Source: Streptomyces sp. P9-A2 (GTDB lineage Bacteria; Actinomycetota; Actinomycetes; Streptomycetales; Streptomycetaceae). From it: 64,000 bases of DNA. The DNA is taken from contig NZ_JAZIFX010000001.1 of the NCBI RefSeq assembly GCF_036634175.1, forward strand, positions 3,038,001 to 3,102,000, read 5' to 3'. This document shows, in pieces, positions 802 through 51,690 of the stretch. A program made the translations under genes and the position numbers. Position 1 is the first letter of the stretch; every line of letters begins with the position of its first letter. Below the pieces are notes generated by a model. That model searched no databases, was not told where the DNA came from, and saw nothing but the letters and a program-made list of their open reading frames with translations.

Positions 802-818
802 CGGGACTACGGGACTAC
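802..818. repeat. 8-bp tandem duplication containing a stop codon
   Basis: On the minus strand the unit TAGTCCCG occurs twice in a row, and the first TAG is the stop codon of the lipoprotein gene. It is short, but it matches the stop-anchored arrays seen at other genes in this window. Confidence 0.6.
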
Positions 819-1213
819 GGCGTGCAGACCTTCGTCAGTTCGCCGGCCGCGTCGGTGACGGGGCTGAGGTCGGGGGTGGTGTCGCCGTCCTCGACGGAGG
901 TGCGGACGTTGCCGACGGCCTTGTCCAGGTTGTCGACGGCCTTGCCGACGTCGGCGTTGTCGGTCTGGTCGCCTATCTCGCCGAGGTTCTGGTCGATGGA
1001 GTCGAGGGACTCCTCGAGCTGGGTGGCGTCGTTGGAGGCGTTTTCGACGGCCTGTTGGAGTTCGGTGACGCTGTCGGCGATGGCGTCGGCGGTCCGGACG
1101 CAGTCGAGTGCCTTGTCGACGGCACTGCAGCCGGTGGTGAGTCCGGCGGTGAGTGCGACGGCAGCCAGTGTGGCGGCGACGGCTGTGGTGCGGCGTCGGC
1201 GGCTCGCGGCCAT
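815..1213 (-). CDS. Small secreted lipoprotein, predicted helical
   Basis: 132 residues. The N-terminus has five arginines near the start, then a hydrophobic segment ending in TTGC, a plausible lipobox with the acylated cysteine at about residue 29. The mature part is acidic and rich in Asp, Gln, Asn and Leu (for example ELQQAVENAS, QLEESLDSID), suggesting a helical or coiled-coil bundle anchored outside the membrane. The start was chosen for GGGAGG about 9 nt upstream; the open frame continues further upstream without codons typical of a coding region. No enzymatic motif is visible and the function is unknown. It lies between rdgB and rph and is probably transcribed separately, because a terminator-like hairpin precedes it. 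Confidence 0.8.
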   Translation of the reverse strand: MAASRRRRTTAVAATLAAVALTAGLTTGCSAVDKALDCVRTADAIADSVTELQQAVENASNDATQLEESLDSIDQNLGEIGDQTDNADVGKAVDNLDKAVGNVRTSVEDGDTTPDLSPVTDAAGELTKVCTP

Positions 1214-1311
1214 GGAACGGTCCCTCCCTCGTGGGGCCGGGCGGCCCTCCTCGCTGACCGGGTGTGCGGAGTGGATCCCGTCCGTACGCCCGTACCCATG
1301 AGGACGCGGGG

Positions 1312-1341
1312 ATGGCCGACGCGGTTGCCCGCGTCGGCCAT
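1312..1341. terminator. Terminator after rph
   Basis: A perfect 13-bp inverted repeat (ATGGCCGACGCGG / CCGCGTCGGCCAT) with a 4-nt loop lies 18 nt past the rph stop codon on the minus strand. Confidence 0.8.
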
Positions 1342-1358
1342 GTCCCTTGGTACGTCCT

Positions 1359-2096
<738 letters not shown>

Positions 2097-2120
2097 GGTG
2101 TCGAGCCTAGCCGTATACGG

Positions 2121-2172
2121 GAGGGGCCCCTTCCGGGTGCGGCGGGTGCGCTGCCGCCGGGAAGGGGCCCTC
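2121..2172. terminator. Hairpin downstream of nagF
   Basis: GGCCCCTTCC pairs with GGAAGGGGCC across a GC-rich 24-25-nt loop. It follows the nagF repeat array on the minus strand and precedes rph, so it probably ends nagF transcription. Confidence 0.6.
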
Positions 2173-2205
2173 GGGTGCCGGGTGTTCCCGGTGCCGTGGA
2201 TCTTC

Positions 2206-2312
2206 GGACGCTCCGGGTACTCAGGAGGTTCCGGGTGTTCAGGACGCTCCGGGTGTCCGGGAGGTTCCGGGTGTTCAGGAGGTTCCGGGTGCTCAGGAGG
2301 TTCCGGTGGTCA
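2206..2312 (-). repeat. Six 17-18-bp tandem repeats starting at the nagF stop codon
   Basis: Read on the minus strand, the nagF stop TGA is the first base triplet of the array. The consensus unit is TGAACACCCGGAACCTCC; the first unit is 17 bp and the next five are 18 bp, with a few substitutions (unit 4 begins CGG instead of TGA). The sequence becomes unique immediately after unit 6. Confidence 0.9.
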
Positions 2313-2543: not shown

Positions 2544-2660
2544 GTTCGCTCTCCCTGATCCGAACCGCTTTTGTCGCAGTAACCCACAGTTGGCCCATCT
2601 TCGCGAGCGGTCGTGCCGTCCGTACCGAAGGATGGCGTCACGATAGCGGGGCCGCCTCCA

Positions 2661-2676
2661 ACTGGTCTACACCACC
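2661..2676. promoter_or_regulatory. DasR operator (dre) between nagF and nagE1
   Basis: ACTGGTCTACACCACC matches the 16-bp dre consensus ASTGGTCTAGACCAST at 14 positions. Its position in the divergent nagF/nagE1 promoter region fits control of both genes by DasR, the GntR-family N-acetylglucosamine regulator. Confidence 0.85.
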
Positions 2677-2695
2677 GGGGGGACCGTCGCCAAAC

Positions 2696-3718: not shown

Positions 3719-3719
3719 G

Positions 3720-6670: not shown

Positions 6671-6690
6671 TACTGCTCTGGTGTGCGTCC

Positions 6691-6734
6691 TGCCCTCATG
6701 GGTCATGCCCTTGTGGGCGTCATGCCCTCGCGGG

Positions 6735-6737
<3 letters not shown>
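6691..6737 (-). repeat. Three 15-17-bp tandem repeats starting at the cysM stop codon
   Basis: On the minus strand: TGACCCGCGAGGGCA, TGACGCCCACAAGGGCA, TGACCCATGAGGGCA. The first TGA is the cysM stop codon. All units end in GGGCA. Confidence 0.8.
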
Positions 6738-7691
<954 letters not shown>

Positions 7692-10883: not shown

Positions 10884-11486
10884 CTACGGCATCAGGGTCG
10901 ATACCAGGGTCTCCTGGAGGCCGCCGAGCCACAGGTACGCCATCACCATGGGCTTGCGCGGATCCTCGTCCGGGAGGCTGAAGAGGAGATCGGTGTCGTC
11001 CTCGTCGTCGATCTCCAGCCGGGACCCGATCGCCAGGCGCAGGTCGTTCAGCGTGCCGAGCCACTGGCGGGACTCCTCGGCGGAGAGCTCGAGCACCGCC
11101 CCTTCTCCGCCGGCCCCGGTGAGTCCGTCCAGGGAGCGGATCACCGTGAGGGCGCTCTCGCGCTTGCCGGCCCGCAGGTCGTTCTCGGTGAAGCGGCGGA
11201 ACTCCGCGGAGTGCTCCCGCCGCTCCTCGGTGTCCTTGGCCGAGGCGGATACCTCGGGGCCGCCGTAGGCGTCCGGGAAGAGCCGGCGCAGCACGGGGTC
11301 GGCGGGCGGTTCGCTCGGGCCCTCGGCGAAGAGTCCGGCAAGCGGGTCGGCGGAGGCGTCCACGGCCGGGCCGGGGCCGATCAGCTCCATGAGCTGCACG
11401 GCGAGGGACCGGATGATGGAGATCTCGACGTCGTCGAGGGCGACGGCCGCGCCGCCGCCGGGGAGCGGTTCGAAGTGTCCTGACAT
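10884..11486 (-). CDS. DUF2017 protein, ClpS-linked
   Basis: 200 residues, acidic, matching the actinobacterial DUF2017 family that is almost always encoded next to clpS. Recognisable parts are ALDDVEISIIRSLAVQLMELI near the start, PDPVLRRLFPDAY-like sequence at about residue 63 (here ADPVLRRLFPDAYGG), EFRRFTENDLRAGKRE, and the C-terminal MVMAYLWLGGLQETLV. No catalytic motif is visible. Linkage to clpS suggests a role near the Clp protease adaptor or N-degron pathway, but this is not established. The ATG follows the clpS gene by 113 nt of repeat-rich DNA. Confidence 0.88.
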   Translation of the reverse strand: MSGHFEPLPGGGAAVALDDVEISIIRSLAVQLMELIGPGPAVDASADPLAGLFAEGPSEPPADPVLRRLFPDAYGGPEVSASAKDTEERREHSAEFRRFTENDLRAGKRESALTVIRSLDGLTGAGGEGAVLELSAEESRQWLGTLNDLRLAIGSRLEIDDEDDTDLLFSLPDEDPRKPMVMAYLWLGGLQETLVSTLMP

Positions 11487-11499
11487 GGAGGCGATTCGC

Positions 11500-11617
11500 T
11501 ACTTCCGGTCCTGCGGGCGGGGGCTGGGGCGGGGCGCGGGCGGGCTGCTGTGTGGCTTTCCGGTCCTGTCGGCGGACTGCTTCCGGTCCTGTCGGCGGGC
11601 TACTTCCGGTCCTGCTG
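11500..11617 (-). repeat. Tandem copies of the clpS 3' end including its stop codon
   Basis: On the minus strand the last clpS codons and stop sit in the unit CAGGACCGGAAG-TAG-CCCGCCGA. The next unit is the same except that TAG becomes CAG and one further base changes, a third partial unit follows at about 11556, and an isolated fourth copy (CAGGACCGGAAGTAG) occurs at about 11500. The unit is about 23 bp. Confidence 0.8.
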
Positions 11618-11917
11618 GAGAGTGGCCCACAGGCCGTAGCCGTGCATGGCCTGGACGTCGCGTTCCATCTCCTCGCGGGTACCGCTGGAGACGACGGCCC
11701 GGCCCTTGTGGTGGACATCGAGCATGAGCTTGGTGGCCTTGTCCTTGGAGTAGCCGAAGTACGTCTGGAAGACGTACGTCACGTAGCTCATGAGGTTGAC
11801 CGGGTCATTGTGGACAAGGGTGATCCAGGGGACGTCGGGCTCGGGCACGGCGAAAACCTCTTCCGCCGACTCGGTGCGTTCGATCTCCAGGGGTGCGGGT
11901 GACGTCACACCGCCCAT
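11600..11917 (-). CDS. clpS: ClpS adaptor of the ClpAP/ClpCP protease
   Basis: 105 residues. The signature [21 protein letters not shown] and the [19 protein letters not shown] helix are typical of ClpS, which delivers N-end-rule substrates to the Hsp100 unfoldase. The asparagine-aspartate pair of VHNDP and the downstream helix line the N-degron pocket. It is divergent from pncB, with only 98 bp between them. DUF2017 follows on the same strand. The C-terminal codons are part of a tandem repeat. Confidence 0.95.
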
Positions 11918-14227: not shown

Positions 14228-14262
14228 GGGGCACCCCTCCGGGGCGTGAGTGCGCCGTGCGG

Positions 14263-14325
14263 GCGTACGCCGGTCAGGCGAGGACCGGCCGGGCGGGGGC
14301 CGATCAAGCGTACGCCGGTCAGGCG
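14263..14325. repeat. 18-bp direct repeat spanning the stop of the hypothetical gene
   Basis: GCGTACGCCGGTCAGGCG occurs at 14263-14280 and again at 14308-14325. The second copy contains the stop codon of the minus-strand hypothetical gene. The intervening 27 bp includes a partial repeat of GCGGGGGCCG. Confidence 0.7.
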
Positions 14326-14687
14326 GGGGCCGCGGGGCGTCCGAGCAGGGCGCGGATCGGGTGCCACAGCTCGACCACCAGGTCGCCGGGACCGGACGGG
14401 CCGGGGCCGGGCAGGGCCGCGCTGTCGGGGGCCGTGCGCCATATGAGGCCGTCGGGGTGGTGCAGCACCGCGGTGATCTCGTCGGGGCTCGGCGGGGCCG
14501 CGTTGCCCCGCAGGTAGACGGCCCGCAGACCCAGGTTGCGCAGCCTCGTCAGGGCGCGGGCCCTGTTGCCCGCGTGCACGAGGACGCGCACCGAGCCGGG
14601 GCCGGCGGCGGGGCTGGGCAGGTTCAGTGCCACCACCACGGTGCCGTTCGGCAGCTTGCTGAAGCCTCCTGCGGCCATGGAATTCAT
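14319..14687 (-). CDS. Conserved-looking hypothetical protein, convergent with pncA
   Basis: 122 residues (119 if the second ATG at 14678, which has GGGGG 10 nt upstream, is used). The N-terminal half is beta-rich (LPNGTVVVALNLPSP, GSVRVLVHAGNRARALTRLRNLG) and a middle stretch reads PPSPDEITAVLHHPDGLIWR. There is no signal peptide or membrane segment. I do not recognise a family or function. Codon use is typical of the region, and the start codons have sensible spacing to G-rich sequence, so I believe it is real. Its stop codon lies in an 18-bp sequence repeated at 14263-14280 and 14308-14325. Confidence 0.65.
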   Translation of the reverse strand: MNSMAAGGFSKLPNGTVVVALNLPSPAAGPGSVRVLVHAGNRARALTRLRNLGLRAVYLRGNAAPPSPDEITAVLHHPDGLIWRTAPDSAALPGPGPSGPGDLVVELWHPIRALLGRPAAPA

Positions 14688-14792: not shown

Positions 14793-14826
14793 AGACGCGG
14801 TTTACTTCGCTGCGCGGCTTACTTCG
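14793..14826 (-). repeat. 17-bp tandem duplication covering the M6 protease stop codon
   Basis: On the minus strand CGAAGTAAGCCGCGCAG is followed directly by CGAAGTAAACCGCGTCT. The in-frame TAA of the second copy is the stop codon; in the first copy the same bases are read in another phase (Glu-Val-Ser). Confidence 0.7.
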
Positions 14827-17174
14827 AGGCGGATCGTCGAGCCGTCCTTGGCCTCCTTGACGATCTTGATCTTTGTGTTGGTGTCAGTGATCTTGACGCC
14901 GCCGCCCGGGTTCGTCTCGTCGTAGTAGGTGTGGGTGCGGTCGTTGAAGACCGGCACACCCTTCGAGGAGCGGATCTTGGTCGCGACGCCGCTCTTGTGC
15001 AGCGTGATGCCGTCCGTGCGGAAGGTGCTGAACGTCGAGTCGTACGTCTGGACGCGGTTGCGCATCAGCGTGCCGTCGGACCACTTCAGCGCGGCCGGGT
15101 GCGAGTCGACCGGCAGGACCAGGCCGGTGCCCGGGTGCCGACTGGTGTTGTTGTCCGCCTGCGAGGTGTCCCACTTCCAGATCAACAGGCCGTTCTGGTA
15201 CGGGAAGTGCTCCACCCAGTCCGGACGGCTGTTCGCGAAGCCGAAGTTGTACGGGCCGACCTTGAGGGTCTTGTCGTACGACACGTACTGGCGGTTCTCG
15301 GCGATGTAGTACTGCGTGTAGTCGTTGGTGAACGACGCGCCGATGCGGGAGAAGCCGTTGGCCGTCCAGGCGGCGTCGGCGGTCTCGGCGTTGTCCGTGA
15401 ACAGCGCGGTGCCGTCCGCGGTCACCGAGATCCGGTCGGCCGCGAAGCCCTTCATCGCCAGGCCGCCGTCGGTCTGGTAGCGGAAGCGCAGGTCGATCTT
15501 CTGACCGGCGTAGGCGTCCAGCGGGTAGGCCAGCGGCTTGTAGCCGTCGACCGTGCCGTGCAGGGCCGGCTTGTCGCTGCCGTCGCGCGGGATCGGCGTG
15601 CCGTCCACCGTGCCGTCCAGGACGGTCCAGTTGGCGCCGCCGTCGGTCGAGGCCTCGGCGTAGAGGAAGTCGTAGTCGGACTCGATCTCGTACCAGCCGT
15701 CGAGCGTCAGCTCGGCCGTCGAGGTGCCGGTGAGGTCCACGGAACGGGTCAGCGTGTTGCGCAGGTCGTCACCGCTGCCGCTCCACCACTGGGTCTCGCC
15801 CTCGGCGGGGACCACTATCTCGGTGGTGACCGCCTTCTCGGGCAGTTCGACCACGAGGGCCTGCTTGTCCTTGGTGTTGTACGCGGCGTAGCCCAGCTTG
15901 TGCTTGGACTTCGTCGCGGCCTTGGCCGTGTCGTAGTCCAGCCAGCCCAGCTGGAGCTTGTCCCAGGCGGTCATGTCGCCGGGCAGGTCGCCGATCTCGT
16001 TCTTCCCGGTGCCGAGCCAGGAACCGGAGGACATCAGGGTCCAGAAGCCGGTGGAGTTCTCGCCGCCCGCGGTGTCGTAGTGGTCCGGCAGGCCGAGGTC
16101 GTGGCCGTACTCGTGGGCGTAGACACCGAGTCCGCCGTTCTCCGGCTGGATGGTGTAGTCGCCGGCCCAGATGCCGGTGTCGCCGACGGGCGCGCCGCCG
16201 AGCTTGTTGTGGGCGGGGCCGGTGGCTCCGGCGTCGGTGCCGAAGGCGTACCAGCGGTGGGCCCAGATCGCGTCCCCGCCCTGGGCACCGCCGCCGGCGG
16301 ACTCGTCCTCACCGGCGTGCACGACCTGGAAGTGGTCGATGTAGCCGTCGGGCTCGTTGAAGTCGCCGTCGCCGTCGAAGTCGTAGCGGTCCCACTCGTC
16401 GAACTTCGCGACGTCCGCCTTGATCTCGGCGTCGGTCGCCCCCGCCGCCTTCTGCTGGGCGACCCATGCGTTCAGGCCGTCGCTGACGACGTTCCACACG
16501 CTCGAGCAGGTGCTCTGGCCACAGGCGTTGTTGCCGTAGCGGGCCTCGTTGTAGGGGACCTTGACCCAGTCGGAGACCTGGCCCTCGACGGAGTAGCGGC
16601 CCGAGGACTGCTTCTCGAAGTACGTCTTGACCGACTCGACACCCTTGCCGGTGCCGAAGTACATGTCCTCGAAGTGCTTCTGGTCGTAGTCCGCCTGCCA
16701 TGCGGTGGAGTTGTCCGCGCCGCGGTCCGGCTCGGCGATCTCGTTGTGCAGCGGTCCGCGGGTGCCGCCGTAGCGGCTGTCGGTCTCGTCGCCGAACTCG
16801 ACCAGGATCGTGAAGATCTTGTCGGTCTTCTCGCGGCCGAGCTCGACGTACTTGCCGGTGCCCTTCTTGCCCTTGCCCTTGCCCTTGAGCTCGACGACCT
16901 TCGAGCCGCCCCGGTCCTTGACCGAGGACTCGCCGGATATGACCTGCTTCAGGGCCTCCTGGCGCTGGGCGTCCCGGGTCTTGGAGAGCGGGCCCTCGAG
17001 GTCGTGCTCGACGTGGTTGTGCTCCGCCGGGTCCTGCCGGTCCACACTGGCCGGCCGGTCGGCCCCTTCGGCCGTGTCGGCCTGGGCCACGGTGAACGCA
17101 GAGCAGGTGGCGGCGATCGCCGCCAGTGCCACGCCTGTCGCGGCCGCTCTGGACGTCCAGGGTCTACTGGTCAC
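14802..17174 (-). CDS. Secreted M6-family (immune inhibitor A-like) metalloprotease
   Basis: 790 residues. A twin basic/hydrophobic N-terminal signal segment (RAAATGVALAAIAATCSAF) precedes a propeptide-like region. The zinc site HEYGHDLGLPDHYD starts at residue 354, the HExxHxxGxxD pattern of M6 peptidases. A Met-turn-like TLMSSGSW follows. The C-terminal half contains beta-rich regions (LTLDGWYEIESDYDFLYAEAS) that resemble MAM/beta-sandwich domains of InhA proteases. It is likely a broad secreted protease. The start is GTG with AGGGG 7 nt upstream, and the region upstream has promoter-like dyads. A run of Lys/Gly (ELKGKGKGKKGTGK) lies in the prodomain. Confidence 0.93.
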   Translation of the reverse strand: MTSRPWTSRAAATGVALAAIAATCSAFTVAQADTAEGADRPASVDRQDPAEHNHVEHDLEGPLSKTRDAQRQEALKQVISGESSVKDRGGSKVVELKGKGKGKKGTGKYVELGREKTDKIFTILVEFGDETDSRYGGTRGPLHNEIAEPDRGADNSTAWQADYDQKHFEDMYFGTGKGVESVKTYFEKQSSGRYSVEGQVSDWVKVPYNEARYGNNACGQSTCSSVWNVVSDGLNAWVAQQKAAGATDAEIKADVAKFDEWDRYDFDGDGDFNEPDGYIDHFQVVHAGEDESAGGGAQGGDAIWAHRWYAFGTDAGATGPAHNKLGGAPVGDTGIWAGDYTIQPENGGLGVYAHEYGHDLGLPDHYDTAGGENSTGFWTLMSSGSWLGTGKNEIGDLPGDMTAWDKLQLGWLDYDTAKAATKSKHKLGYAAYNTKDKQALVVELPEKAVTTEIVVPAEGETQWWSGSGDDLRNTLTRSVDLTGTSTAELTLDGWYEIESDYDFLYAEASTDGGANWTVLDGTVDGTPIPRDGSDKPALHGTVDGYKPLAYPLDAYAGQKIDLRFRYQTDGGLAMKGFAADRISVTADGTALFTDNAETADAAWTANGFSRIGASFTNDYTQYYIAENRQYVSYDKTLKVGPYNFGFANSRPDWVEHFPYQNGLLIWKWDTSQADNNTSRHPGTGLVLPVDSHPAALKWSDGTLMRNRVQTYDSTFSTFRTDGITLHKSGVATKIRSSKGVPVFNDRTHTYYDETNPGGGVKITDTNTKIKIVKEAKDGSTIRLEVSRAAK

Positions 17175-17896: not shown

Positions 17897-18619
17897 TCAC
17901 CGGGCGCTGACCACGACCGTCTTGGCGGCCTTGTCGTGCAGGCCCTGTTTGTAGGGCTTGTCGAAGAAGCTCCAGCCGCCCGCGATCACGGTCCACACAC
18001 AGGCGCAGCAGAACGCGAACGGAATCCACAGCACGGCGGCGCGTATCAGTGACGTCTGCACGGAGGGCGTCGAGCCGTTGGACAGGTCGGCCACCCGCAG
18101 CTTCAGCCACCTCTTGCCGAGGGTCTGCCCGGAGCGGGACATCAGGATGGTGTCGTAGGCGATGTAGAGGACCGCGGCGATGAGGGACTGGGTGAAGGAC
18201 TTGCCGACGTTGACCTCGTCGCCGCTCACGTCGTACTCGCTCACGCCGAACGGCCAGGTGAGCAGCCAGACGACCAGGCCCACCAGGATCATGTCGATGA
18301 TGCGGGCGAGGGTGCGCCTGCCGCTGTCGGCGAGGGGTGGCATTCCGGCGAGGGGGTCGCCGGGGCCGGGGCCGTACGGGCCGCCGCCACCGTAGGGACC
18401 GCCGCCGCCTCCCCCGTACGGGCCGCCGGCACCACCGCCTCCGCCGTACGGGCCGCCTGCACCACCGTAGGGGTCACCGCTCCCGCTCCCGTACGGACCG
18501 CCGCCGTAAGGGCCGCCGCCTTGCTGCGGCGGGGGCTGGTCGCCGGGCGGAGGGTGTTTCTTGAACGGGTCGTCGTCCGGGGGCTGCTGACCGGAGCCCG
18601 GGGGCGGTTCGGTACTCAT
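17897..18619 (-). CDS. RDD-family membrane protein with a Gly/Pro/Tyr-rich N-terminus
   Basis: 240 residues. Residues 1 to about 95 are disordered and dominated by GGPYGG-type repeats. The RDD domain follows: RRTLARIIDMILVGLVVWLL (Arg and Asp of the first helix), a second helix at QSLIAAVLYIAYDTILM, then QTLGKRWLKLRV and a third hydrophobic segment near LWIPFAFCCACVW. RDD proteins are small integral membrane proteins of mostly unknown role; some behave as Na+(K+)/H+ antiporters. The next gene upstream on the same strand encodes a second RDD protein, a probable paralogue. Confidence 0.9.
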   Translation of the reverse strand: MSTEPPPGSGQQPPDDDPFKKHPPPGDQPPPQQGGGPYGGGPYGSGSGDPYGGAGGPYGGGGGAGGPYGGGGGGPYGGGGPYGPGPGDPLAGMPPLADSGRRTLARIIDMILVGLVVWLLTWPFGVSEYDVSGDEVNVGKSFTQSLIAAVLYIAYDTILMSRSGQTLGKRWLKLRVADLSNGSTPSVQTSLIRAAVLWIPFAFCCACVWTVIAGGWSFFDKPYKQGLHDKAAKTVVVSAR

Positions 18620-18797
18620 GGCCCGAGTCGACCGCGAACCCCCCGGTCGCGCATCCGGCGAGCCGCCGTCCGGAGTAGCGGTGCCGCGGCCCGCCCGCGC
18701 AGCCGGTCCGAAGGGGTGATCCCCCGCCTGCTTCCGTCTGTTCCCCGCCTGTTCCCCCGTGCGGTCCCCCGCCTGTTCCCCCGTGGTTCCGGTGGGG

Positions 18798-22565: not shown

Positions 22566-24119
22566 ATGGACGACAAGCCGCAGGAGACCGGGGGCGGGGA
22601 CGAGACCCGTGAGCAGGGCCAGACCCGTGGACAGGGCCAGACCCGTGGACAGGGCGAAACCCGTGAGCAGGGCCAGATCCGTGAGCGGGACGGCACACCG
22701 GGGTGGGGGAGAGCCCTCGCGTGGGTGGGCCGCGGGCGTCGGGCGCGGTTCGGTTCGGCCGCCGCCGGGTGCGCCGTGCTCGGCGGGGTGCTGGTGCTGC
22801 TGCCGTGGGAGCGCGGGGCGGAGGTGCCACCGGAGCCGGCGCCCGGGGCGCTGGCGCGGGCGGCGGTGGCCAGTGGGGTGCCGGCGTCGCTGCCCGGTCT
22901 GGAGGCACTGGTCGAGGAGCGGGAGCGGCATCTGAAGAAGCATCCGAAGGACGCGGAGTCCTGGGCGGTACTCGGAGCGGCCCGGGTGGAGCAAGGGCGG
23001 CGGCTGGCGGATCCCGCGCGGTACTCGCGGGCCGAGCAGGCACTGCGCACCTCGCTGAAGGTGCGGCCGCGGGACAACGCCGCGGCGCTGCGCGGGCTGG
23101 CGGCGCTGGCGAACGCGCGCCACGACCATCCCGCCGCCCTCGAGTGGGGCGAGCGGGCGCGGAAGCTGGAGCCCGAGCGGTGGACGACGTACCCTCCGCT
23201 GGTCGAGGCGTACACCGGGCTCGGTGACGGCGAGGCGGCGGGGAGGATGCTGGACCGGCTGAAGGCGTTGCGGTCGGATCCGGCCGTGATGGCGCTGGCG
23301 GCGGCCGTGTACCGGGACAAGGGCCTGCGGGAGGACGCGGCGGCCCAGCTCTCCGACGCCGCCGCGGCGGCCGGGGAGCCGGCCGAGCGGGCGGCGTACC
23401 TGGAGCGGGCCGGGCAGCTGGCTTGGGAGCGCGGCGACCGGGAGGACGCCCTGGGGCATTTCCGGGAGGCGCTGCGGATCGACCCGGACCAGGGAGCGGC
23501 GCAGGCGGGGCAGGGCAGGGTGCTGGCCGCGCTCGGCCGGACCACGGAGGCGCTCGGCGCCTACCGGGCGGCGCTGGCCGGGCAGCCGCTGCCGGAGTAC
23601 GAGCTGGAACTGGGTGAGCTGTACGAGTCCCTGGGACTGCGGCAGGACGCCCGGGTCCACTACGACCTGGTGCGTTCCCGGGTACGCGAGGCCGCCGCCC
23701 ACGGCGCCGACGGGGATCTGGTGCTCGGCCGGTTCGAGGCGGACCACGGGGACCCCCGGGCCGCGGTGCGGCGGCTGCGGACGGAGTGGGAGCGGCAGCC
23801 GTCGACGGCTGTGGCCGACGCGCTGGGCTGGGCGCTGCACCGGTCGGGGCGGTCCGAGGAGGCGCTGGAGTTCGCGGTGCGGGCGATGGAGGGGGCGACG
23901 GAGGAGGCGCACGGCGGCGGGGTGCGCAGCGCGCTGCACGCCTTCCACCGGGGCATGATCGAGCTCGAACTCGATGAGGACGGGCCCGCGCGGCGGCATC
24001 TGCGGGAGGCGCTGAGCATCAATCCGTACTTCTCCCCGCTGCGGGTGCCGCAGGCGAAGGCGGCACTGGAACGGCTGGGCGAGCCGCCGGTCGGGGGCGG
24101 GCCGCCGGACTGGTCGTGA
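22566..24119 (+). CDS. TPR-repeat membrane protein
   Basis: 517 residues. An N-terminal charged low-complexity region (about residues 10-42) is built from tandem T/E-R-G/E-Q-G-Q hexapeptides, encoded by 18-bp DNA repeats. A single hydrophobic helix (about 62-77) then anchors the protein, followed by roughly ten tetratricopeptide-like helical pairs (for example AESWAVLGAARVEQGRRLADPARYSRAEQALR, DALGHFREALRIDPDQG). It is a predicted scaffold on one face of the membrane; partners unknown. I chose ATG at 22566; a GTG 9 nt upstream is also possible. The stop codon begins a short GA-rich tandem repeat. Confidence 0.88.
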   Translation: MDDKPQETGGGDETREQGQTRGQGQTRGQGETREQGQIRERDGTPGWGRALAWVGRGRRARFGSAAAGCAVLGGVLVLLPWERGAEVPPEPAPGALARAAVASGVPASLPGLEALVEERERHLKKHPKDAESWAVLGAARVEQGRRLADPARYSRAEQALRTSLKVRPRDNAAALRGLAALANARHDHPAALEWGERARKLEPERWTTYPPLVEAYTGLGDGEAAGRMLDRLKALRSDPAVMALAAAVYRDKGLREDAAAQLSDAAAAAGEPAERAAYLERAGQLAWERGDREDALGHFREALRIDPDQGAAQAGQGRVLAALGRTTEALGAYRAALAGQPLPEYELELGELYESLGLRQDARVHYDLVRSRVREAAAHGADGDLVLGRFEADHGDPRAAVRRLRTEWERQPSTAVADALGWALHRSGRSEEALEFAVRAMEGATEEAHGGGVRSALHAFHRGMIELELDEDGPARRHLREALSINPYFSPLRVPQAKAALERLGEPPVGGGPPDWS

Positions 24120-24148
24120 GGAGAGTGAAGTGAGGAGAGTGAGGAGAG
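24117..24148 (+). repeat. Tandem TGAGGAGAG repeats starting at the TPR gene stop codon
   Basis: The stop TGA begins TGAGGAGAG, then TGAAG, then TGAGGAGAG twice more. Each unit begins with TGA. Confidence 0.7.
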
Positions 24149-24189
24149 ACGGCGAGGGCCGGACACGGAGTGGTGCCCCGTACCCGGCC

Positions 24190-24248
24190 CTCGCCGTCAT
24201 CGGCCCGCCGTCATCGGGCCCGCCGTCATCGGGCCCGCCGGCATCCGG

Positions 24249-24251
<3 letters not shown>
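24190..24251 (-). repeat. 14-15-bp tandem repeats starting at the hpd stop codon
   Basis: On the minus strand the hpd stop TGA starts a variant unit, then TGACGGCGGGCCCGA, TGACGGCGGGCCGA and a truncated TGACGGCGA follow in tandem. Confidence 0.85.
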
Positions 24252-26037
<1,786 letters not shown>

Positions 26038-30021: not shown

Positions 30022-30063
30022 CCGCGGTCAGCCCGCGGTCAGCCCGCGGTCAGCCCGCGGTCA
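30022..30063 (-). repeat. Four 11-bp tandem repeats starting at the S16 protease stop codon
   Basis: On the minus strand TGACCGCGGGC occurs three times followed by TGACCGCGGTC; the first TGA is the stop codon of the S16-like protease. The array fills the short gap to the converging transporter operon. Confidence 0.85.
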
Positions 30064-30852
30064 GCAGCTCGGGACCTTGCCCGCGTCCTTCTCCAGGGCG
30101 ACCAGGGCGTCGACGGTGCCCTCGAGGGTGGTGACCGGGATCAGGCGCAGACCGTCGGGGAGTTCCGCCCGCGCCGCGGCGCACTCGGCCTCGGGCACCA
30201 GGAAGACGGTGGCGCCGTCCCGCCGGGCGGCCTGCGTCTTCAGCGGCACCCCGCCCACGGCGCCGACCCTGCCCTTGGCGTCGATCGTCCCCGTACCGGC
30301 GATGATCCGGCCGCCGGTGAGGTCGCCGCCGCTGTCGTCGCCGTTCAGTTTGTCGACGATGCCGAGGGAGAAGAGCAGGCCGGCGCTGGGTCCGCCGACG
30401 TCGGCGAGCTTCAGGTCGACCTCGATGTCCTTGCCGTCCAGGTCCAGGTAGCCCAGCGCGGCCCGGGTCGCCTCCTGCTGCGACGCGCGCATCTGCTTCT
30501 CGTTGTACTGCTCGATCTCCTCGAGGTTGTCCCCGGTGGGGTAGACCGAGTCGCGGGGCATGACGGCCTGGTCGGTGCCGAACCAGGCGTCGAGGACGTC
30601 CGGGAGGCTCACCCGGGTGTCGGGGGAGGTCGCCTCGATCGTCGTCATCCGCAGCTGGCCGGTGGTCTCGCGGGTCTTCGCGCCGGAGACGGTGATGACC
30701 TGTGTGCCCTTGCTCTCGCCGAGCACGTCGGCCGTCAGTCCCGGCTGCGCCACCGAGAACGGCAGCGGCGCGAACACCGCCGTGGCCAGCAGGGCGACGA
30801 CGGGAACGGCACAGACGGCCAGGGCCTGGGGACGCGTGAGGCGAGAGAGCAC
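30061..30852 (-). CDS. Secreted Lon-like (S16) serine protease, YlbL-type without an obvious PDZ
   Basis: 263 residues. One N-terminal membrane helix (ALAVCAVPVVALLATAVF), then an extracytoplasmic domain. The Lon-type Ser-Lys dyad is Ser156 in DVGGPSAGLLFSLG and Lys205 in GVPLKTQAA; TGTGTIDAKGRVGAVGG between them is also typical. Larger relatives (YlbL) carry a PDZ domain between helix and protease, which I do not see here. Substrates are unknown. The start GTG is preceded directly by TAGATT-GACCCC, suggesting a leaderless transcript, and no ribosome site is visible. Confidence 0.88.
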   Translation of the reverse strand: MLSRLTRPQALAVCAVPVVALLATAVFAPLPFSVAQPGLTADVLGESKGTQVITVSGAKTRETTGQLRMTTIEATSPDTRVSLPDVLDAWFGTDQAVMPRDSVYPTGDNLEEIEQYNEKQMRASQQEATRAALGYLDLDGKDIEVDLKLADVGGPSAGLLFSLGIVDKLNGDDSGGDLTGGRIIAGTGTIDAKGRVGAVGGVPLKTQAARRDGATVFLVPEAECAAARAELPDGLRLIPVTTLEGTVDALVALEKDAGKVPSC

Positions 30853-43329: not shown

Positions 43330-43616
43330 AACCGGCTGCCCCTTCCCGCGGCCCCACCTGGTCCCACCTGTTGCAGCCGTACGGTACGACCTGACAGGGC
43401 GGACGTGGCAACTCTGGCACATCTTCGCGAGCACCGAAGACAGGGGTCCACTAGGAGACGTTCGCCCACCTCACAGGCCACTTGACCCGTTTTGGGGCCC
43501 CATCGCCCGTGTGCTCGAATTGGTACCGTTCGATGATCCTTGCGACTTTTCCGTGCGGCCTGTTCGGGATGGGGCGGGCCGGGGGTGTGCCGGGCCGAGG
43601 CGGACCGGGCCGGGGG
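43330..43616. promoter_or_regulatory. Upstream region of the molybdenum hydroxylase operon
   Basis: About 285 bp without a gene, between the hydroxylase operon start and the hexosaminidase stop. The part near the hexosaminidase is a GGGCCGGGGG-type degenerate repeat. I see no clear operator. Confidence 0.35.
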
Positions 43617-45278
43617 CTACCGGTTCGGGGGTGGGCCGTCGATGGGGCGGCCCAGTACGCCGGGGCGCCGCTGCCAGGGCAGCGGGCCGGTGGGCGGGCG
43701 GTAGGCCACGCCGAGGGCGTCGAGTCGCCGGTAGTGGGCGGCCATCCGGCGCTCGAAGTCCGCGAAGTCCCGTTCCGCGGGGGCGGACAGCGCGCTCCAG
43801 GCGACCTCGGCGAGGGCGGCGAGCCGGGGAAAGACCTGGTAGTCCACCCTCGCCTGGTTCTCCGTCACCTCGGACCAGGCGTTGGCCTGGGTGCCGAGCA
43901 CCCGCCCGGCGTCCTCGGGCGTCAGCTCCGCCGGCACGGGTTCGAACCGGTAGACGTCCTCCAGGGTGCGCACGTACCCGATCGGTACCGGCTCCTCGGG
44001 GCCCGCGTCCTGGCGGTGGTCCAGGTACACGTGCTGCTCGGGGCACATGACCACGTCGTGCCCCGCGCGGGCGGCGGCGACCCCGCCGGCGTAGCCGCGC
44101 CAGGAGGACACGGCGGCGCCCGGGGCGAGGCCGCCCTGGAGGATCTCGTCCCAGCCGATCAGCCGGCGGCCCCGTTCGGCGAGCCAGCCGGCGAAGTGCC
44201 CGACGAACCAGGACTGGAGGGCGTCCTCGTCGGCCAGGCCGAGATCGGCGATCCGTTTCCGCGCGATGTCCGACGCACGCCACTGGTCCTTCGGGCATTC
44301 GTCGCCGCCGATGTGGACGAACGACGAATGCCCCGGGGCGCCCGTCGCGTCGGCGGGAAACAGTTCCAGGACTTCCTCGAGCACTCCTTCGTAGAAGCGC
44401 AGTGTGGTGTCGGTGGGGGCGAGTACGTTCGGATTGATCCCCCAGGTGTCCCAGACGGTCAGCGAGGAGGTGTCGACGACGTCGGTGTTGCCGAGTTCCG
44501 GATACGCGGCGATGGCGGCCTGCGAGTGGCCGGGCACGTCGATTTCGGGGACGACGGCGATATGCCGTTCGGCCGCGTAGGCGACGATCTCCCGGATGTC
44601 GTCCTGGGTGTAGTGGCCGCCGTGCGGTGTGTCGTTCCACAGGGGTGAGGCGCGGTGGCCGAGTTTCGTCCGGGCGCGCCAGGATCCGACCTCCGTCAGC
44701 CGCGGGTAGCGCTGGATCTCGATGCGCCAACCCTGGTCGTCCGTCAGGTGGAAGTGCAGGACATTGAGTTTGTGCGCGGCCATCAGATCGAGATAACGCA
44801 GTACGCCTTCCTTGGGCGTGAAGTGCCGGGCGACGTCGAGCATGAGGCCGCGCCAGCGGAAGCGGGGGGCGTCCTCGATCGTGACGTGCGGCACGGTCCG
44901 GACCCGGTCGCGGCCGAGCGGGGCCCTGCGGTACGCGTCGGGGCCCAGGAGCTGCCGCAGCGTCTGGGCGCCCCGGAAGACACCGGCCGCGCTGCCGCCC
45001 TCGATCAGGACGCCGTTCGGGTCGCTGACGAGGCGGTACTCCTCGGGACCGAGCCCGGGGTCGAGCTGGAGCCCGATGCCGTCGACGTCCGTGTCGTCGA
45101 GCTCCCGTCCCTCGTGAAACGGCAGGCCGGTGGCCTGCCGGAGGACGGTGCCCAGCCAGTGTCCGACGCCCTCCGTCGCGGGACCGGCGTAGAGCCGGGA
45201 GTGCTCCGTCAGCCGTACCTCGCCGGAGCCGGTGACGACGCTGCGGGGCGCGGGAATCAGTTCCGTCGGCGATGTCAT
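43617..45278 (-). CDS. Cytoplasmic beta-N-acetylhexosaminidase, GH20
   Basis: 553 residues. An N-terminal GH20b-like domain precedes the catalytic barrel (RFRWRGLMLDVARHF; HFHLTDDQGWRIEI). The Asp-Glu catalytic pair of substrate-assisted hydrolysis is Asp326-Glu327 in HIGGDECPKDQW. No signal peptide is visible, so it acts inside the cell, cleaving imported chito-oligosaccharides to N-acetylglucosamine. It is the last gene of the four-gene unit led by the binding lipoprotein, starting 1 nt after the permease stop. With the nag PTS genes upstream in this window it suggests a GlcNAc catabolic network. Confidence 0.94.
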   Translation of the reverse strand: MTSPTELIPAPRSVVTGSGEVRLTEHSRLYAGPATEGVGHWLGTVLRQATGLPFHEGRELDDTDVDGIGLQLDPGLGPEEYRLVSDPNGVLIEGGSAAGVFRGAQTLRQLLGPDAYRRAPLGRDRVRTVPHVTIEDAPRFRWRGLMLDVARHFTPKEGVLRYLDLMAAHKLNVLHFHLTDDQGWRIEIQRYPRLTEVGSWRARTKLGHRASPLWNDTPHGGHYTQDDIREIVAYAAERHIAVVPEIDVPGHSQAAIAAYPELGNTDVVDTSSLTVWDTWGINPNVLAPTDTTLRFYEGVLEEVLELFPADATGAPGHSSFVHIGGDECPKDQWRASDIARKRIADLGLADEDALQSWFVGHFAGWLAERGRRLIGWDEILQGGLAPGAAVSSWRGYAGGVAAARAGHDVVMCPEQHVYLDHRQDAGPEEPVPIGYVRTLEDVYRFEPVPAELTPEDAGRVLGTQANAWSEVTENQARVDYQVFPRLAALAEVAWSALSAPAERDFADFERRMAAHYRRLDALGVAYRPPTGPLPWQRRPGVLGRPIDGPPPNR

Positions 45279-48947: not shown

Positions 48948-48976
48948 GAATCAAAGGGTACTGAAGCTCACACGCA

Positions 48977-49558
48977 TCAGTTGAGCGAAGGGTCGTCCGG
49001 ATAGGTGGCCACCATCGCCAGTTCGCCGCGCTGGCGGCGCAGCACCTCGCGCCAGAGCCGCTCCGGCACCGGGTACGCGATGTCGCCGGGCTCCGACTCC
49101 ACGACGTACCAGGCGCCCTCCAGCAGCTCGTCCTCCAGCTGGCCGGGGCCCCACCCCGCGTAGCCGGCGAAGATCCGCAGCGAGCCGAGAGCGGCCGCGA
49201 GCAGCTCCGGCGGTGCCTCCAGATCGACCAGCCCGATCGCCCCGTACACCCGGCGCCAGCCCAGCGGGGCGGCCCCGCCCCCCGTCCCACCGGGGACGAC
49301 GGCGACGCCGAGGGCCGAGTCCAGCGACACCGGGCCGCCCTGGAAGACGACCCCCGGTTCACCGGCCAGGCCCGCCCAGCCCTCCAGGATGTCCCCCACG
49401 CCCACCGGGGTCGGGCGGTTGAGCACAACACCGAGGGAGCCCTCCTCGTCGTGGTCGAGGAGGAGCACGACCGCACGGTCGAAGTTCGGGTCCGCCAGGG
49501 CCGGCGTGGCCACGAGCAGCCGCCCTGTGAGCGAGGACACCTCGGTCATGCCAGACAT
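48977..49558 (-). CDS. yqgE: YqgE/AlgH family protein (UPF0301)
   Basis: 193 residues. SSLTGRLLVATPALADPNFDRAVVLLLDHDEEGSLGVVLNRPT is the family N-terminus; GGPVSLDSALGVAV and FAGYAGWGPGQLEDELLEGAWYVV follow. The fold is known from structures, but the biochemical role is not settled. Start could be the ATG of MSGMTEV (with GGGAAG upstream) or the ATG three codons later, which matches the annotated S. coelicolor protein as I remember it. Divergent from murA. Confidence 0.92.
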   Translation of the reverse strand: MSGMTEVSSLTGRLLVATPALADPNFDRAVVLLLDHDEEGSLGVVLNRPTPVGVGDILEGWAGLAGEPGVVFQGGPVSLDSALGVAVVPGGTGGGAAPLGWRRVYGAIGLVDLEAPPELLAAALGSLRIFAGYAGWGPGQLEDELLEGAWYVVESEPGDIAYPVPERLWREVLRRQRGELAMVATYPDDPSLN

Positions 49559-49868
49559 GATTCCGCATCTTCCCTTTCTGTGGGGAGGCAATCGGGGTAC
49601 GGGGGCGAACACGGCCGGCCGGCGCGTGAGCGGCCTGATGGGCCGCCGGTCCGGGACGGCCCCAGCGGGGCCGCGGGCGCCCGGCGGGCGTACGGAAGCA
49701 CCTCCGGCGCACGGTGACGGCGGTGACCCCCAGTGGCCGGAGGGGAACCGCTCGTGTCCCGGTGGCCACGGGGACGGGACCGGGCCGCGCACGGGCTGGT
49801 GGAACGGGCATGGAGGGCGACTACCCTTGCCCTTCTGGCCCCTGCCCCCTCCACGGAACGCGAGATCC
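49559..49868. promoter_or_regulatory. yqgE/murA divergent promoter region
   Basis: 310 bp between divergent starts. GC-rich throughout, with no clear inverted repeat or RNA gene; both promoters must lie here, but I cannot place -10 boxes with confidence. Confidence 0.4.
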
Positions 49869-51215
49869 ATGACCGTCAACGGCGCTGAAGACGTCCTGCT
49901 TGTCCACGGCGGAACCCCGCTGGAGGGGGAGATACGTGTCCGCGGTGCGAAGAACCTCGTACCGAAGGCCATGGTCGCCGCTCTGCTGGGCAGTGAGCCG
50001 AGCCGGCTGGGCAATGTTCCGGACATCCGTGACGTCCGGGTCGTACGAGGGCTGCTCCAGCTGCACGGGGTGACGGTCCGCCCGGGCGAGGAGCCCGGTG
50101 AACTGGTGCTCGACCCCACGCACGTGGAGAGCGCCAACGTCGCCGACATCGATGCCCACGCGGGTTCGTCCCGCATTCCGATCCTGTTCTGCGGCCCCCT
50201 GCTGCACCGGCTCGGGCACGCGTTCATCCCGGGACTGGGCGGCTGCGACATCGGCGGCCGGCCGATCGACTTCCACTTCGACGTGCTGCGCCAGTTCGGC
50301 GCGACGATCGAGAAGCGGGCGGACGGCCAGTACCTGGAGGCCCCGCAGCGGCTGCGCGGCACGAAGATCGAGCTGCCGTACCCGTCCGTCGGCACGACGG
50401 AACAGGTGCTGCTGACGGCGGTCCTCGCGGAGGGCGTCACCGAGCTGTCCAACGCGGCGGTGGAGCCGGAGATCGAGGACCTGATCTGCGTCCTGCAGAA
50501 AATGGGCGCGATCATCGCGATGGACACCGACCGGACCATCCGCATCACCGGTGTGGACAAGCTCGGCGGCTACAACCACCGCGCCCTCCCCGACCGCCTG
50601 GAGGCCGCCTCCTGGGCGTCCGCGGCGCTGGCCACCGAGGGCAACATCTACGTCCGCGGCGCCCAGCAGCGCTCGATGATGACGTTCCTGAACACCTACC
50701 GGAAGGTGGGCGGCGCCTTCGAGATCGACGACGAGGGCATCCGGTTCTGGCACCCGGGCGGCCGGCTCAAGTCGATCGCCCTGGAGACGGACGTCCACCC
50801 GGGTTTCCAGACCGACTGGCAGCAGCCGCTGGTGGTCGCCCTGACCCAGGCGACGGGGCTGTCGATCGTCCACGAGACGGTCTACGAGTCCCGCCTCGGC
50901 TTCACCTCGGCGCTCAACCAGATGGGTGCGCACATCCAGCTCTACCGCGAATGCCTGGGCGGTTCCCGCTGCCGCTTCGGCCAGCGCAACTTCCTCCACT
51001 CGGCCGTCGTCTCGGGCCCGACCCAGCTCCAGGGCGCCGACCTGGTCATCCCCGACCTGCGCGGCGGCTTCTCCTACCTGATCGCCGCCCTCGCCGCCCA
51101 GGGCACGTCCCGCGTCCACGGCATCGGCCTGATCAACCGCGGCTACGAGAACTTCATGGACAAGCTGGTGGAGCTGGGGGCGAAGGTCGAACTCCCCGGC
51201 AAGGCACTCGGCTGA
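49869..51215 (+). CDS. murA: UDP-N-acetylglucosamine 1-carboxyvinyltransferase
   Basis: 448 residues of the EPSP synthase/MurA fold. The N-terminal substrate loop RVRGAKNLVPKAMVAALL is present, and the catalytic cysteine is Cys126 in PGLGGCDIGGRPIDFH, implying fosfomycin sensitivity in principle. It adds enolpyruvate to UDP-GlcNAc, the first committed peptidoglycan step. The C-terminus (MDKLVELGAKVELPGKALG) lies in a 140-bp tandem repeat whose other three copies follow the gene. Streptomycetes may carry a second murA elsewhere. Confidence 0.96.
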   Translation: MTVNGAEDVLLVHGGTPLEGEIRVRGAKNLVPKAMVAALLGSEPSRLGNVPDIRDVRVVRGLLQLHGVTVRPGEEPGELVLDPTHVESANVADIDAHAGSSRIPILFCGPLLHRLGHAFIPGLGGCDIGGRPIDFHFDVLRQFGATIEKRADGQYLEAPQRLRGTKIELPYPSVGTTEQVLLTAVLAEGVTELSNAAVEPEIEDLICVLQKMGAIIAMDTDRTIRITGVDKLGGYNHRALPDRLEAASWASAALATEGNIYVRGAQQRSMMTFLNTYRKVGGAFEIDDEGIRFWHPGGRLKSIALETDVHPGFQTDWQQPLVVALTQATGLSIVHETVYESRLGFTSALNQMGAHIQLYRECLGGSRCRFGQRNFLHSAVVSGPTQLQGADLVIPDLRGGFSYLIAALAAQGTSRVHGIGLINRGYENFMDKLVELGAKVELPGKALG

Positions 51216-51690
51216 CGGACCGAACCCGACAACCCCGCCACCAGCGCCACCCACCCGGCCGGGGGTCCGGGGGTCGCCCCCCGGGCAGACACAGCATGGA
51301 CAAGCTGGTGGAGCCGGGGGCGAAGGTCGAACTCCCCGGCAAGGCACTCGGCTGACGGACCGAACCCGACAACCCCGCCACCAGCGCCACCCACCCGGCC
51401 GGGGGTCCGGGGGTCGCCCCCCGGGCAGACACAGCATGGACAAGCTGGTGGAGCCGGGGGCGAAGGTCGAACTCCCCGGCAAGGCACTCGGCTGACGGAC
51501 CGAACCCGACAACCCCGCCACCAGCGCCACCCACCCGGCCGGGGGTCCGGGGGTCGCCCCCCGGGCAGACACAGCATGGACAAGCTGGTGGAGCCGGGGG
51601 CGAAGGTCGAACTCCCCGGCAAGGCACTCGGCTGACGGACAGAACCCGACAACCCCGCCACCGACGCCACCCACCCGGCCGGTCGAGCTT
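51156..51690 (+). repeat. Four 140-bp tandem repeats overlapping the murA 3' end
   Basis: Units start at 51156, 51296, 51436 and 51576, each at ATGGACAAGCTGGTGGAG. Unit 1 holds the last 19 codons and stop of murA. Units 2-4 repeat the coding segment with one change (Leu to Pro codon, GAGCTG to GAGCCG) plus the downstream GGGGGTCCGGGGGTCGCC hairpin-like sequence. Units 2 and 3 look identical; unit 4 has small differences and ends in unique DNA near 51690. Confidence 0.95.

What the first reader, a model, noticed from the sequence alone, without database searches (positions are those of the whole stretch)
802..51690. Tandem repeats anchored on stop codons at about ten genes
At the small lipoprotein, nagF, cysM, clpS, the hypothetical gene next to pncA, the M6 protease, the TPR protein, hpd, the S16 protease and murA, a tandem array either starts exactly with the stop codon or contains it. 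Unit lengths run from 8 to 140 bp and sequences are unrelated, so this is not one dispersed repeat family. For nagF, cysM, hpd and the S16 protease most units begin with TGA, giving clusters of stop triplets. Possible explanations are slippage favoured at gene ends, selection for backup stops or for transcript-end structure, or a lineage-specific duplication process.
Basis: partly seen in the sequence, partly recalled or inferred. Interest (0 to 1): 0.75.

Follow-up and report, generated by a model that had tools for sequence, protein, structure and literature searches.

The report
Gene-end repeats and a dispersed element
In this Streptomyces, short tandem repeats pile up just behind stop codons mostly because that stretch of DNA is free to change, but the largest of them turns out to hold a small dispersed DNA element that sits between duplicated copies of the end of its neighbouring gene.

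Summary
In the window, 8 of 10 named gene ends carry a tandem copy across the stop (6 by TRF score >=50, 2 short ones); nagF needs one 1-nt gap, hpd starts 3 nt later. Arrays cross stops far more than starts (three Streptomyces sets pooled: 110 vs 12).

For most arrays the cause looks ordinary. They lie between stop and terminator hairpin, which is displaced by the inserted length. Between sister species all indels concentrate there, and in convergent regions the rate is as high far from the stop as beside it. Later copies keep the stop triplet less well than other triplets: no backup stops.

The murA array is different. Its 140-bp unit is a gene-end segment T plus a ~45-bp element E. E recurs across the genus; 63 of 100 copies sit between two copies of T, T mostly holds a gene's 3' end with its stop, and T begins right after an NTTN motif at 18 of 20 target sites. 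This looks like a short element inserted with a long target duplication. The enzyme is unknown.

The parts
800..820 (-).
   Evidence: TRF score 42; shuffle p=0.01
2206..2306 (-). 18/36-bp array behind nagF-like EIIB gene 2310-2543; reaches the stop if one unit has a 1-nt deletion
   Evidence: TRF, sequence, Pfam PTS_EIIB
6674..6742 (-). 32-bp array across the stop of cysM-like gene 6735-7685
   Evidence: TRF; Pfam PALP; shorter spacer in S. hirsutus L098
6638..6670 (-). terminator-like hairpin directly behind the cysM array, same sequence in S. hirsutus
   Evidence: sequence, read by eye
11558..11614 (-). 23-bp array across the stop of clpS (11600-11848); S. hirsutus lacks one unit's length here
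   Evidence: TRF, Pfam ClpS, sister alignment
14262..14332 (-). 15-bp array across the stop of hypothetical gene 14319-14687
   Evidence: TRF
14796..14826 (-). two imperfect 17-bp copies across the stop of the M6 protease gene 14802-17132
   Evidence: shuffle p=0.01; not in TRF list; Pfam Peptidase_M6
24116..24142 (+). 14-bp array starting 1 nt before the stop of the TPR gene 22566-24119
   Evidence: TRF
24148..24198 (.). long hairpin shared by the convergent TPR and hpd genes; an array lies on each side
   Evidence: sequence, read by eye
24192..24245 (-). 15-bp array starting at the 4th base after the stop of the hpd-like gene 24249-25397
   Evidence: TRF, Pfam glyoxalase/HPPD
30022..30065 (-). 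perfect 11-bp x4 array across the stop of the S16/Lon_C gene 30061-30852
   Evidence: TRF, Pfam Lon_C
43575..43631 (-).
   Evidence: TRF; shuffle p=0.02
49869..51215 (+). murA (EPSP synthase family), whose 3' end is duplicated in the array
   Evidence: Pfam EPSP_synthase
51155..51682 (+). 140-bp x3.8 array read as T-E-T-E-T-E-T
   Evidence: TRF, sequence
51156..51260 (+). first T: last 60 nt of murA with its stop, plus spacer; preceded by CTTC
51261..51295 (+). element E, copy 1 (35-nt core; conserved part starts about 5-9 nt further left)
   Evidence: exact pattern match
51401..51435 (+). element E, copy 2
51541..51575 (+). element E, copy 3
51576..51682 (+). last T, not followed by E
51726..51766 (.). 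terminator-like hairpin behind the murA array
   Evidence: sequence, read by eye; a similar hairpin lies close behind murA in several relatives

Best explanation
Two things are mixed. (1) Most stop-anchored arrays are neutral insertions. Tandem duplications and other indels survive where no function is hit: from about one unit upstream of the stop (the first copy keeps the stop, so the protein is unchanged) to the terminator hairpin, and between hairpins in convergent regions. The stop looks like an anchor because it is the edge of the permitted zone, which in co-directional regions is short. (2) The murA array is the expanded product of a short dispersed element. E (~45 bp: a G-rich hairpin with a 3' tail ending CAG[C/T]) goes in behind a gene together with a duplication T (34-143 bp in single units, 167 in one) that starts right after an NTTN motif in the gene and mostly runs past the stop. 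This gives T-E-T with the gene intact; unequal exchange between T copies then makes T-E-T-E-T arrays. Shown: the anatomy, the motif, empty sites at two loci. Inferred: that E moves, that T arises in the same event, and the exchange step.
For: (1) Stop vs start crossing 39/5, 62/5 and 9/2 in three Streptomyces sets (pooled sign test p=5e-21); stop in the first copy in 62 of 62, 29 of 39 and 8 of 9; hairpin equally frequent with and without a stop-anchored array (0.45 of 154, 0.46 of 1795) but starting at median 58 instead of 26 nt, 22 after the net insert is subtracted; array-hairpin overlap 72 of 248 against 119 by random placement; sister-species indels 22 per kb at 1-10 nt after stops falling to 2.6 beyond 100 nt, with substitutions falling likewise, aligner artefact excluded by simulation; flat rate in convergent DNA outside hairpins; arrays in one member of a sister pair 38, both 5 (none with a similar unit), neither 177. 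(2) E pattern: 37 exact matches in 27 of 295 genus genomes, 0 for the reversed control; T copy in 63 of 100 E copies against 19 of 300 random pairings; TT in the motif at 18 of 20 independent sites, background 0.021; same-strand stop between T start and E in 52 of 63; E absent from 19 of 20 relatives at the L239 locus and from 27 of 30 murA loci.
Against: (1) A 1.6-fold excess of array starts at stops remains in convergent regions after correcting for room (p=0.015-0.018) and 2.2-2.4-fold in co-directional ones; at ends without a detected hairpin the peak is 2.7- to 4.6-fold; the convergent indel counts are small (41 in 36 regions), and hairpins there are only weakly depleted (5 in 465 bp, p=0.07). 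In the own sample 10 of 39 crossing arrays start more than one unit upstream. (2) 37 of 100 E copies show no T, 8 of them inside called genes; 2 of 20 sites lack TT; most of the genomes were chosen because they carry E; no E has been seen to move.
Confidence: 0.74

Rival explanations
1. The stop itself is a mutational hotspot: slippage or breakage is favoured where translation ends and RNA polymerase runs on uncoupled.
For: Array starts peak at -15 to +10 of the stop, also at ends without a detected hairpin, and part of the peak survives correction for room. Substitutions in gap-free ends are 0.20 per site at 1-10 nt, above fourfold sites at 0.128 (56 of 172 ends).
Against: In convergent DNA outside hairpins indels are equally frequent near and far from the stop (p=0.75); array-type indels are 33-42% of indels at 1-20 nt and 17-53% elsewhere after stops, so arrays are not specially enriched among indels.
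Confidence: 0.15
2. Selection favours repeated stop triplets as backup stops.
For: Later copies at the stop position are TGA 35, TAA 4, TAG 4 of 70 usable arrays in the second copy.
Against: The stop triplet is kept less well than other triplets (0.576 vs 0.741, p=0.003) and periods are not enriched for multiples of 3 against control arrays (47 of 106 vs 23 of 51).
Confidence: 0.03
3. For E: a SINE-like element, an RNA reverse-transcribed at a nick next to the NTTN motif by an enzyme acting in trans.
For: Fixed 3' end of E, motif before the first T, T of variable length match the footprint of target-primed reverse transcription in eukaryotes (recalled). Reverse transcriptase family PF00078 in 26 of 52 genomes with E and 22 of 69 without (p=0.06).
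Against: The association is weak, genomes with E are larger (p=0.001) and relatedness was not corrected. No autonomous partner was seen; 3-kb loci of six E copies without T hold no distant T.
Confidence: 0.2
4. For E: a derivative mobilised by an HUH/Y1 (IS200/IS605-like or REP-associated) transposase.
For: Hairpin element and a short TT-containing insertion motif (resemblance recalled). Y1_Tnp PF01797 in 21 of 52 genomes with E and 12 of 69 without (p=0.007; size-stratified odds 2.5); own genome has 10 matches.
Against: Such elements insert without target duplication (recalled). No E-like sequence lies at the eight own Y1_Tnp loci fetched, bar one weak 5-mismatch match to the hairpin part only.
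Confidence: 0.25
5. For E: not mobile; a conserved terminator-like hairpin copied locally by replication template switching, with the duplications as by-products.
For: E forms a hairpin (predicted -18.8 kcal/mol) and the murA T/E junction shares CGGCCGG with the end of the last T, as a microhomology jump would.
Against: E's 3' end and the motif before T are fixed at unrelated genes (18 of 20 sites), which random template switching does not predict; E is absent from most relatives at the two loci checked.
Confidence: 0.2

Closest known systems
Tandem repeats of archaeal Borg elements (PMC9879509; abstract opening and passages seen)
   Different: Borg repeats are perfect and A-rich and occur on extrachromosomal elements; here units are GC-rich and many are imperfect, on the chromosome.
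Stop-to-terminator spacer needed for termination in E. coli (PMC4824070; abstract and passages seen)
   Same: A terminator close behind a stop is repressed by ribosomes, so distance matters; here arrays lengthen that spacer and leave the hairpin in place.
   Different: No arrays there; in Streptomyces I only infer that extra length is tolerated.
REP/BIME elements of enterobacteria and pseudomonads (recalled; one related title seen in the listing)
   Same: Short dispersed palindromic elements outside genes, sometimes in tandem.
   Different: Duplication of the neighbouring gene end with an NTTN motif is not something I know for REPs.
MIRU repeats of mycobacteria (recalled; the search listed papers but none was read)
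   Same: Actinobacterial units of tens of bp sitting at stop codons, some in tandem.
   Different: One family of related units; the ten window arrays are mostly unrelated to each other, and E lies behind the stop with a copied gene end.
SINEs moved by target-primed reverse transcription (recalled)
   Same: Variable long target duplication, motif at one end, fixed 3' end of the element.
   Different: Bacterial, about 45 nt, no known partner element, enzyme unknown.

Membership tests
Neutral VNTR-type arrays (non-murA arrays) | Head-to-tail copies beyond chance | tested here: met
   149 of 746 3' flanks vs 7.5 in shuffles
Neutral VNTR-type arrays (non-murA arrays) | Independent birth and quick turnover between species | tested here: met
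   Unit clusters 16 of 18 (nagF), 10 of 10 (cysM), 9 of 11 (clpS), 16 of 16 (14319) arrays; sister pairs share 5, none with a similar unit
Neutral VNTR-type arrays (non-murA arrays) | Occur wherever DNA is unconstrained, not only at stops | tested here: met
   Flat indel rate in convergent DNA outside hairpins, small counts; residual excess of array starts at stops
REP/BIME elements | Dispersed short palindromic element | tested here: met
   Hairpin; 52 of 121 genus genomes have a match
REP/BIME elements | Served by a REP-associated Y1 transposase | tested here: inconclusive
   Genome-level association only, p=0.007, confounded by size and relatedness; no E at own Y1 loci
IS200/IS605-derived miniature element | Insertion 3' of a short TT-containing motif | tested here: met
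   NTTN before T at 18 of 20 sites
IS200/IS605-derived miniature element | No target duplication | tested here: not met
   T on both sides of E in 63 of 100 copies
SINE-like retroelement | Variable target duplication with motif at one end and fixed element 3' end | tested here: met
SINE-like retroelement | Reverse transcriptase acting in trans | tested here: inconclusive
   PF00078 in 26 of 52 vs 22 of 69 genomes, p=0.06
SINE-like retroelement | Transcribed RNA ending at E's 3' end | not testable with these tools
   needs RNA data
Known RNA families (Rfam 15) | Covariance-model match to E | tested here: not met
   4 loci scanned at E<=0.5; one sub-threshold miRNA-family match in L248, taken as chance

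The most novel reading that the evidence does not exclude
E is a bacterial SINE-like element: a ~45-nt hairpin RNA written into the chromosome at NTTN sites near gene 3' ends by a reverse transcriptase acting in trans. The long duplication restores the gene end, so insertion is harmless, and later exchange between the duplicates builds tandem arrays such as the one at murA.
Probability: 0.2. Interest if true: 0.88.

Novelty: new variant of a known kind. Interest (0 to 1): 0.58.

Why it matters
The general part gives a measured picture of where Streptomyces DNA is free to change (the gap between stop and terminator) and warns against reading function into repeats there. The E part, if it stands, is a very small dispersed element with an unusual insertion footprint: duplicated gene 3' end, NTTN motif, fixed tail. 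That makes the enzyme and mechanism directly testable, and shows how gene ends, even of overlapping genes and a tRNA gene, can be duplicated without damage.

Tried and rejected
Backup stops: rejected. Stop hotspot: weakened, not excluded. My first explanation of the start peak, that detected hairpins alone make it, failed: the peak is also there at ends without a detected hairpin. A first tandem-duplication filter on sister-pair indels called only 6% of post-stop indels tandem because it missed multi-unit inserts; the TRF-based rule replaced it. and the clpS count took gene indices from a slightly different gene list (5 of 80 loci with another gene number); one search recomputed them with the right list and its numbers are used here (sister-pair sharing and the S. 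hirsutus identity did not change). Linking E to the ends of resident Y1_Tnp genes found nothing. For the six E copies without T in the first set of 33 a search of the whole 3-kb locus found no distant T. Rfam gave nothing. E. coli MG1655, three 50-kb stretches: 1 array in all, 0 of 131 called gene ends crossed (against 39 of 998, p=0.02), so the array load is not universal; the caller was checked there on 5 annotated genes only (stops right in 5 of 5). Other actinobacterial genomes: stop/start crossing 3/0, 2/0, 2/0, too few for a trend. The control was inflated by pairs from the same orthologous locus (median 13, 95% point 37, maximum 54, against 27 of 33 real pairs at 20 or more); one search repeats it with more copies. 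Literature: 10 searches showed no description of E or of stop-anchored arrays in Streptomyces, judged from titles, abstract openings and hit counts within that open-access library only; two papers were looked into (passages).
Full report
Setting. The window is G000:C1:3038001-3102000 of an 8.39-Mb genome in two contigs, 71.5% GC. Its nearest relatives in the named collection are Streptomyces; the nearest, S. hirsutus (L098), is 98.2% identical over the last 1300 nt of the 8976-10403 gene. Genes were called with a codon-usage caller of my own. In the 1.26-Mb own sample it finds 1057 genes and 77% coding, so some genes are missed and some 'intergenic' DNA is coding.

Observation. TRF lists 109 rows in the window at score 40 or more. 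The lipoprotein and M6 protease repeats are weak but pass shuffles. nagF and hpd start at the 4th base after the stop in TRF; nagF reaches the stop with one 1-nt gap. Pfam supports nagF (PTS EIIB), cysM (PALP), ClpS, TPR, hpd (glyoxalase/HPPD), S16 (Lon_C), murA (EPSP synthase), M6 and the isochorismatase; gene 815-1213 matched nothing above a curated cut-off.

Genome-wide test. In the window plus 60 sampled stretches, 149 of 746 3' flanks hold an array against 7.5 in shuffles, and 72 of 764 5' flanks against 2.9. Arrays wholly inside genes have a period divisible by 3 in 236 of 249. Arrays per kb are 2.51 in convergent, 1.40 in co-directional and 0.60 in divergent regions up to 500 bp. Stops are crossed 39, 62 and 9 times and starts 5, 5 and 2 times in the own sample without the window, in 80 orthologous loci of other species, and in five further Streptomyces genomes. 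Over 2911 gene ends of these three sets, array starts peak at -15 to +10 of the stop (1.6 to 3.2 per kb by 5-nt bin), are 1.3 per kb at 20-50 nt and 0.7-0.9 beyond 100 nt, and fall to 0.25 and then 0.04 per kb beyond 20 and 30 nt upstream. The stop lies in the first copy in 62 of 62, 29 of 39 and 8 of 9 crossing arrays.

What makes the peak. A hairpin detector (stem of 9 or more) finds a hairpin in 46% of 1795 ends without an array and 45% of 154 ends with a stop-anchored one; it starts at a median of 26 and 58 nt, and 22 nt after the net insert is subtracted (raw p=9e-10, after subtraction p=0.054). Array-hairpin overlaps are 72 of 248 against 119 expected from random placement. So stop-anchored arrays behave as length insertions between stop and terminator. 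cysM shows it directly: S. hirsutus has a shorter spacer and the same hairpin. Alignments of 14 sister pairs give indels of 5 bp or more at 22, 14, 6.7, 5.0, 3.1 and 2.6 per kb from 1-10 to 101-150 nt after stops, 0.7 to 3.2 per kb upstream of starts and 0.5 in genes; substitutions fall along the same gradient. A simulation shows that the aligner does not pile gaps at the stop. Split by context (36 convergent, 101 co-directional, 25 divergent regions up to 250 bp), convergent DNA outside hairpins is equally free near and far from the stop (19 in 701 bp vs 22 in 921 bp, p=0.75), co-directional DNA is free mainly in the first 15 nt (24 in 1226 bp vs 19 in 6620 bp, p=2e-9), and divergent DNA is constrained (7 in 3232 bp). 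I read the stop as the edge of the free zone and not as a hotspot. Against this: a 1.6-fold excess of array starts at stops remains in convergent regions after correcting for room (p=0.02), ends without a detected hairpin show a stronger peak, and the indel counts are small.

Backup stops. Of 106 arrays with the stop in the first copy, 70 could be compared without gaps. Later copies keep the stop triplet in 0.576 on average against 0.741 for other triplets (p=0.003); in 6 arrays with two or more later copies all of these share one non-stop triplet. Periods divisible by 3 are 47 of 106 against 23 of 51 in control arrays. Selection for extra stops is not supported.

Independent births. At 20 window gene ends with 20 or more orthologues, arrays lie near the stop in 0 to 31% of species (0 of 79 and 0 of 74 at two ends, 18 of 59 at nagF). 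Units fall into 16 clusters of 18 (nagF), 10 of 10 (cysM), 9 of 11 (clpS) and 16 of 16 (14319). In 13 sister pairs 5 ends have arrays in both (none with a similar unit), 38 in one, 177 in neither.

The murA exception. Part of the 140-bp unit matches many places in the genus, some themselves in tandem with other spacings. Reading 15 such loci showed a common element E, in many followed by a copy of the upstream gene's end. A strict pattern gave 37 matches in 27 of 295 genomes and none for the reversed pattern; with up to 3 mismatches 52 of 121 genus genomes have it. In 20 chosen genomes this gave 96 matches, 1 to 16 per genome. From 110 loci I took 100 non-redundant copies (most of the genomes were chosen because they carry E, and units of one array count more than once). 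In 63, the 20 nt after E's 3' end match an upstream segment T in at least 15 positions, against 19 of 300 random pairings. These 63 fall into 20 target sites by a loose clustering; TT stands in the motif at 18 of 20 (background 0.021, p=1e-28). Over the 63 the motifs are CTTC 30, GTTC 16, CTTT 5, CTTA 3, TTTT 2, GTTT 2, GTTA 1 and four without TT, of which one is simply E itself in an array. A same-strand stop lies between T start and E in 52 of 63. Many motifs are in-frame Phe codons (read by eye). One site (L243, L254, L281) starts in the anticodon loop of tRNA-Lys(CTT). At a gene pair that seems translationally coupled (cluster with T-E of 57 bp, 13 copies) one T copy ends the first gene and the other carries the start of the second; this is read from the sequences. 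In the own genome four E loci are known, each with a T copy preceded by TT: murA, L291 and L226 and L224.

In the window the array reads T-E-T-E-T-E-T (51156-51682), with identical E copies and the last T followed by other sequence; the T/E junction and the end of the last T share CGGCCGG. The first, functional T has CTG where the next three have CCG. Of the 30 murA loci fetched (from 56 genomes with a match), 3 carry E, the own genome included, and only the own genome has the 140-bp array; one other has a weaker long-period repeat (149 bp x1.9). At the L239 locus 1 of 20 carries E, and the other 19 show a gene end without E. So E with T is most simply a derived insertion at these two loci. 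Further genomes outside that set carry E at murA with a T copy too (for example L252, L256, L264, L271).

How E might move. T-E-T with a motif before the first T, a fixed E end and variable T length is the footprint of an insertion with a staggered, motif-guided cut; target-primed reverse transcription gives such footprints in eukaryotes (recalled). Y1 transposase genes are commoner in genomes with E (21 of 52 vs 12 of 69, p=0.007), reverse transcriptases less clearly (26 of 52 vs 22 of 69, p=0.06); genomes with E are larger (p=0.001) and relatedness was not corrected. No E was found beside eight own Y1 loci, bar one weak match to the hairpin part. The enzyme stays open.

Novelty. Arrays reaching into gene ends are described for Borg elements (PMC9879509, passages), and the need for a stop-terminator spacer is known in E. 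coli (PMC4824070, abstract and passages). One paper reports a conserved structure right after stops (PMC7518266, abstract opening in the listing only); in my data this DNA is the fastest-changing zone measured. I found no description of E in ten searches of one open-access library; most subscription journals are not in it, so E may be known.

Noticed in passing
window 11486-11614: The last codons of clpS (GCAGGACCGGAAG) recur behind its stop in the window and, in part, in other species: GGACCGGAA occurs in the 200 nt after the stop in 18 of 78 orthologues. A further copy with TAG lies just before the next gene.
   Followed up: partly
window 24116-24245: Convergent TPR and hpd genes: array, shared long hairpin, array. 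Both arrays flank the hairpin and mostly leave it intact.
   Followed up: partly
window 51296-51635: T copies 2-4 of the murA array each hold a 19-codon ATG..TGA reading frame made of the murA C-terminus.
   Followed up: no
L364: A relative without E at the L239 locus has its own stop-crossing array there: a 14-bp unit repeated at least four times from the gene end.
   Followed up: no
G128:C1:7466809-7467253 and 3941207-3941517 (L324, L320): Tandem E arrays with 82-bp (six listed units) and 138-bp (three units) spacing in another species; the second starts with a murA-like end.
   Followed up: partly
G097, many contigs: The left, G-rich half of E matches more than ten further places in this genome, so E may be part of a wider family with other tails.
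   Followed up: no
L086 gene 16071-16835, own genome sample: Another long-unit array across a stop (157 bp x2.7); not examined for an element like E.
   Followed up: no
window 14802-17132 and its orthologues: The M6 protease end has no TRF array in 0 of 74 orthologues, unlike most ends, although the window copy has a weak two-copy repeat.
   Followed up: no
window 17897-19346: Two neighbouring RDD-family genes; a repeat region at 18363-18520 (period 75) lies inside the first.
   Followed up: no
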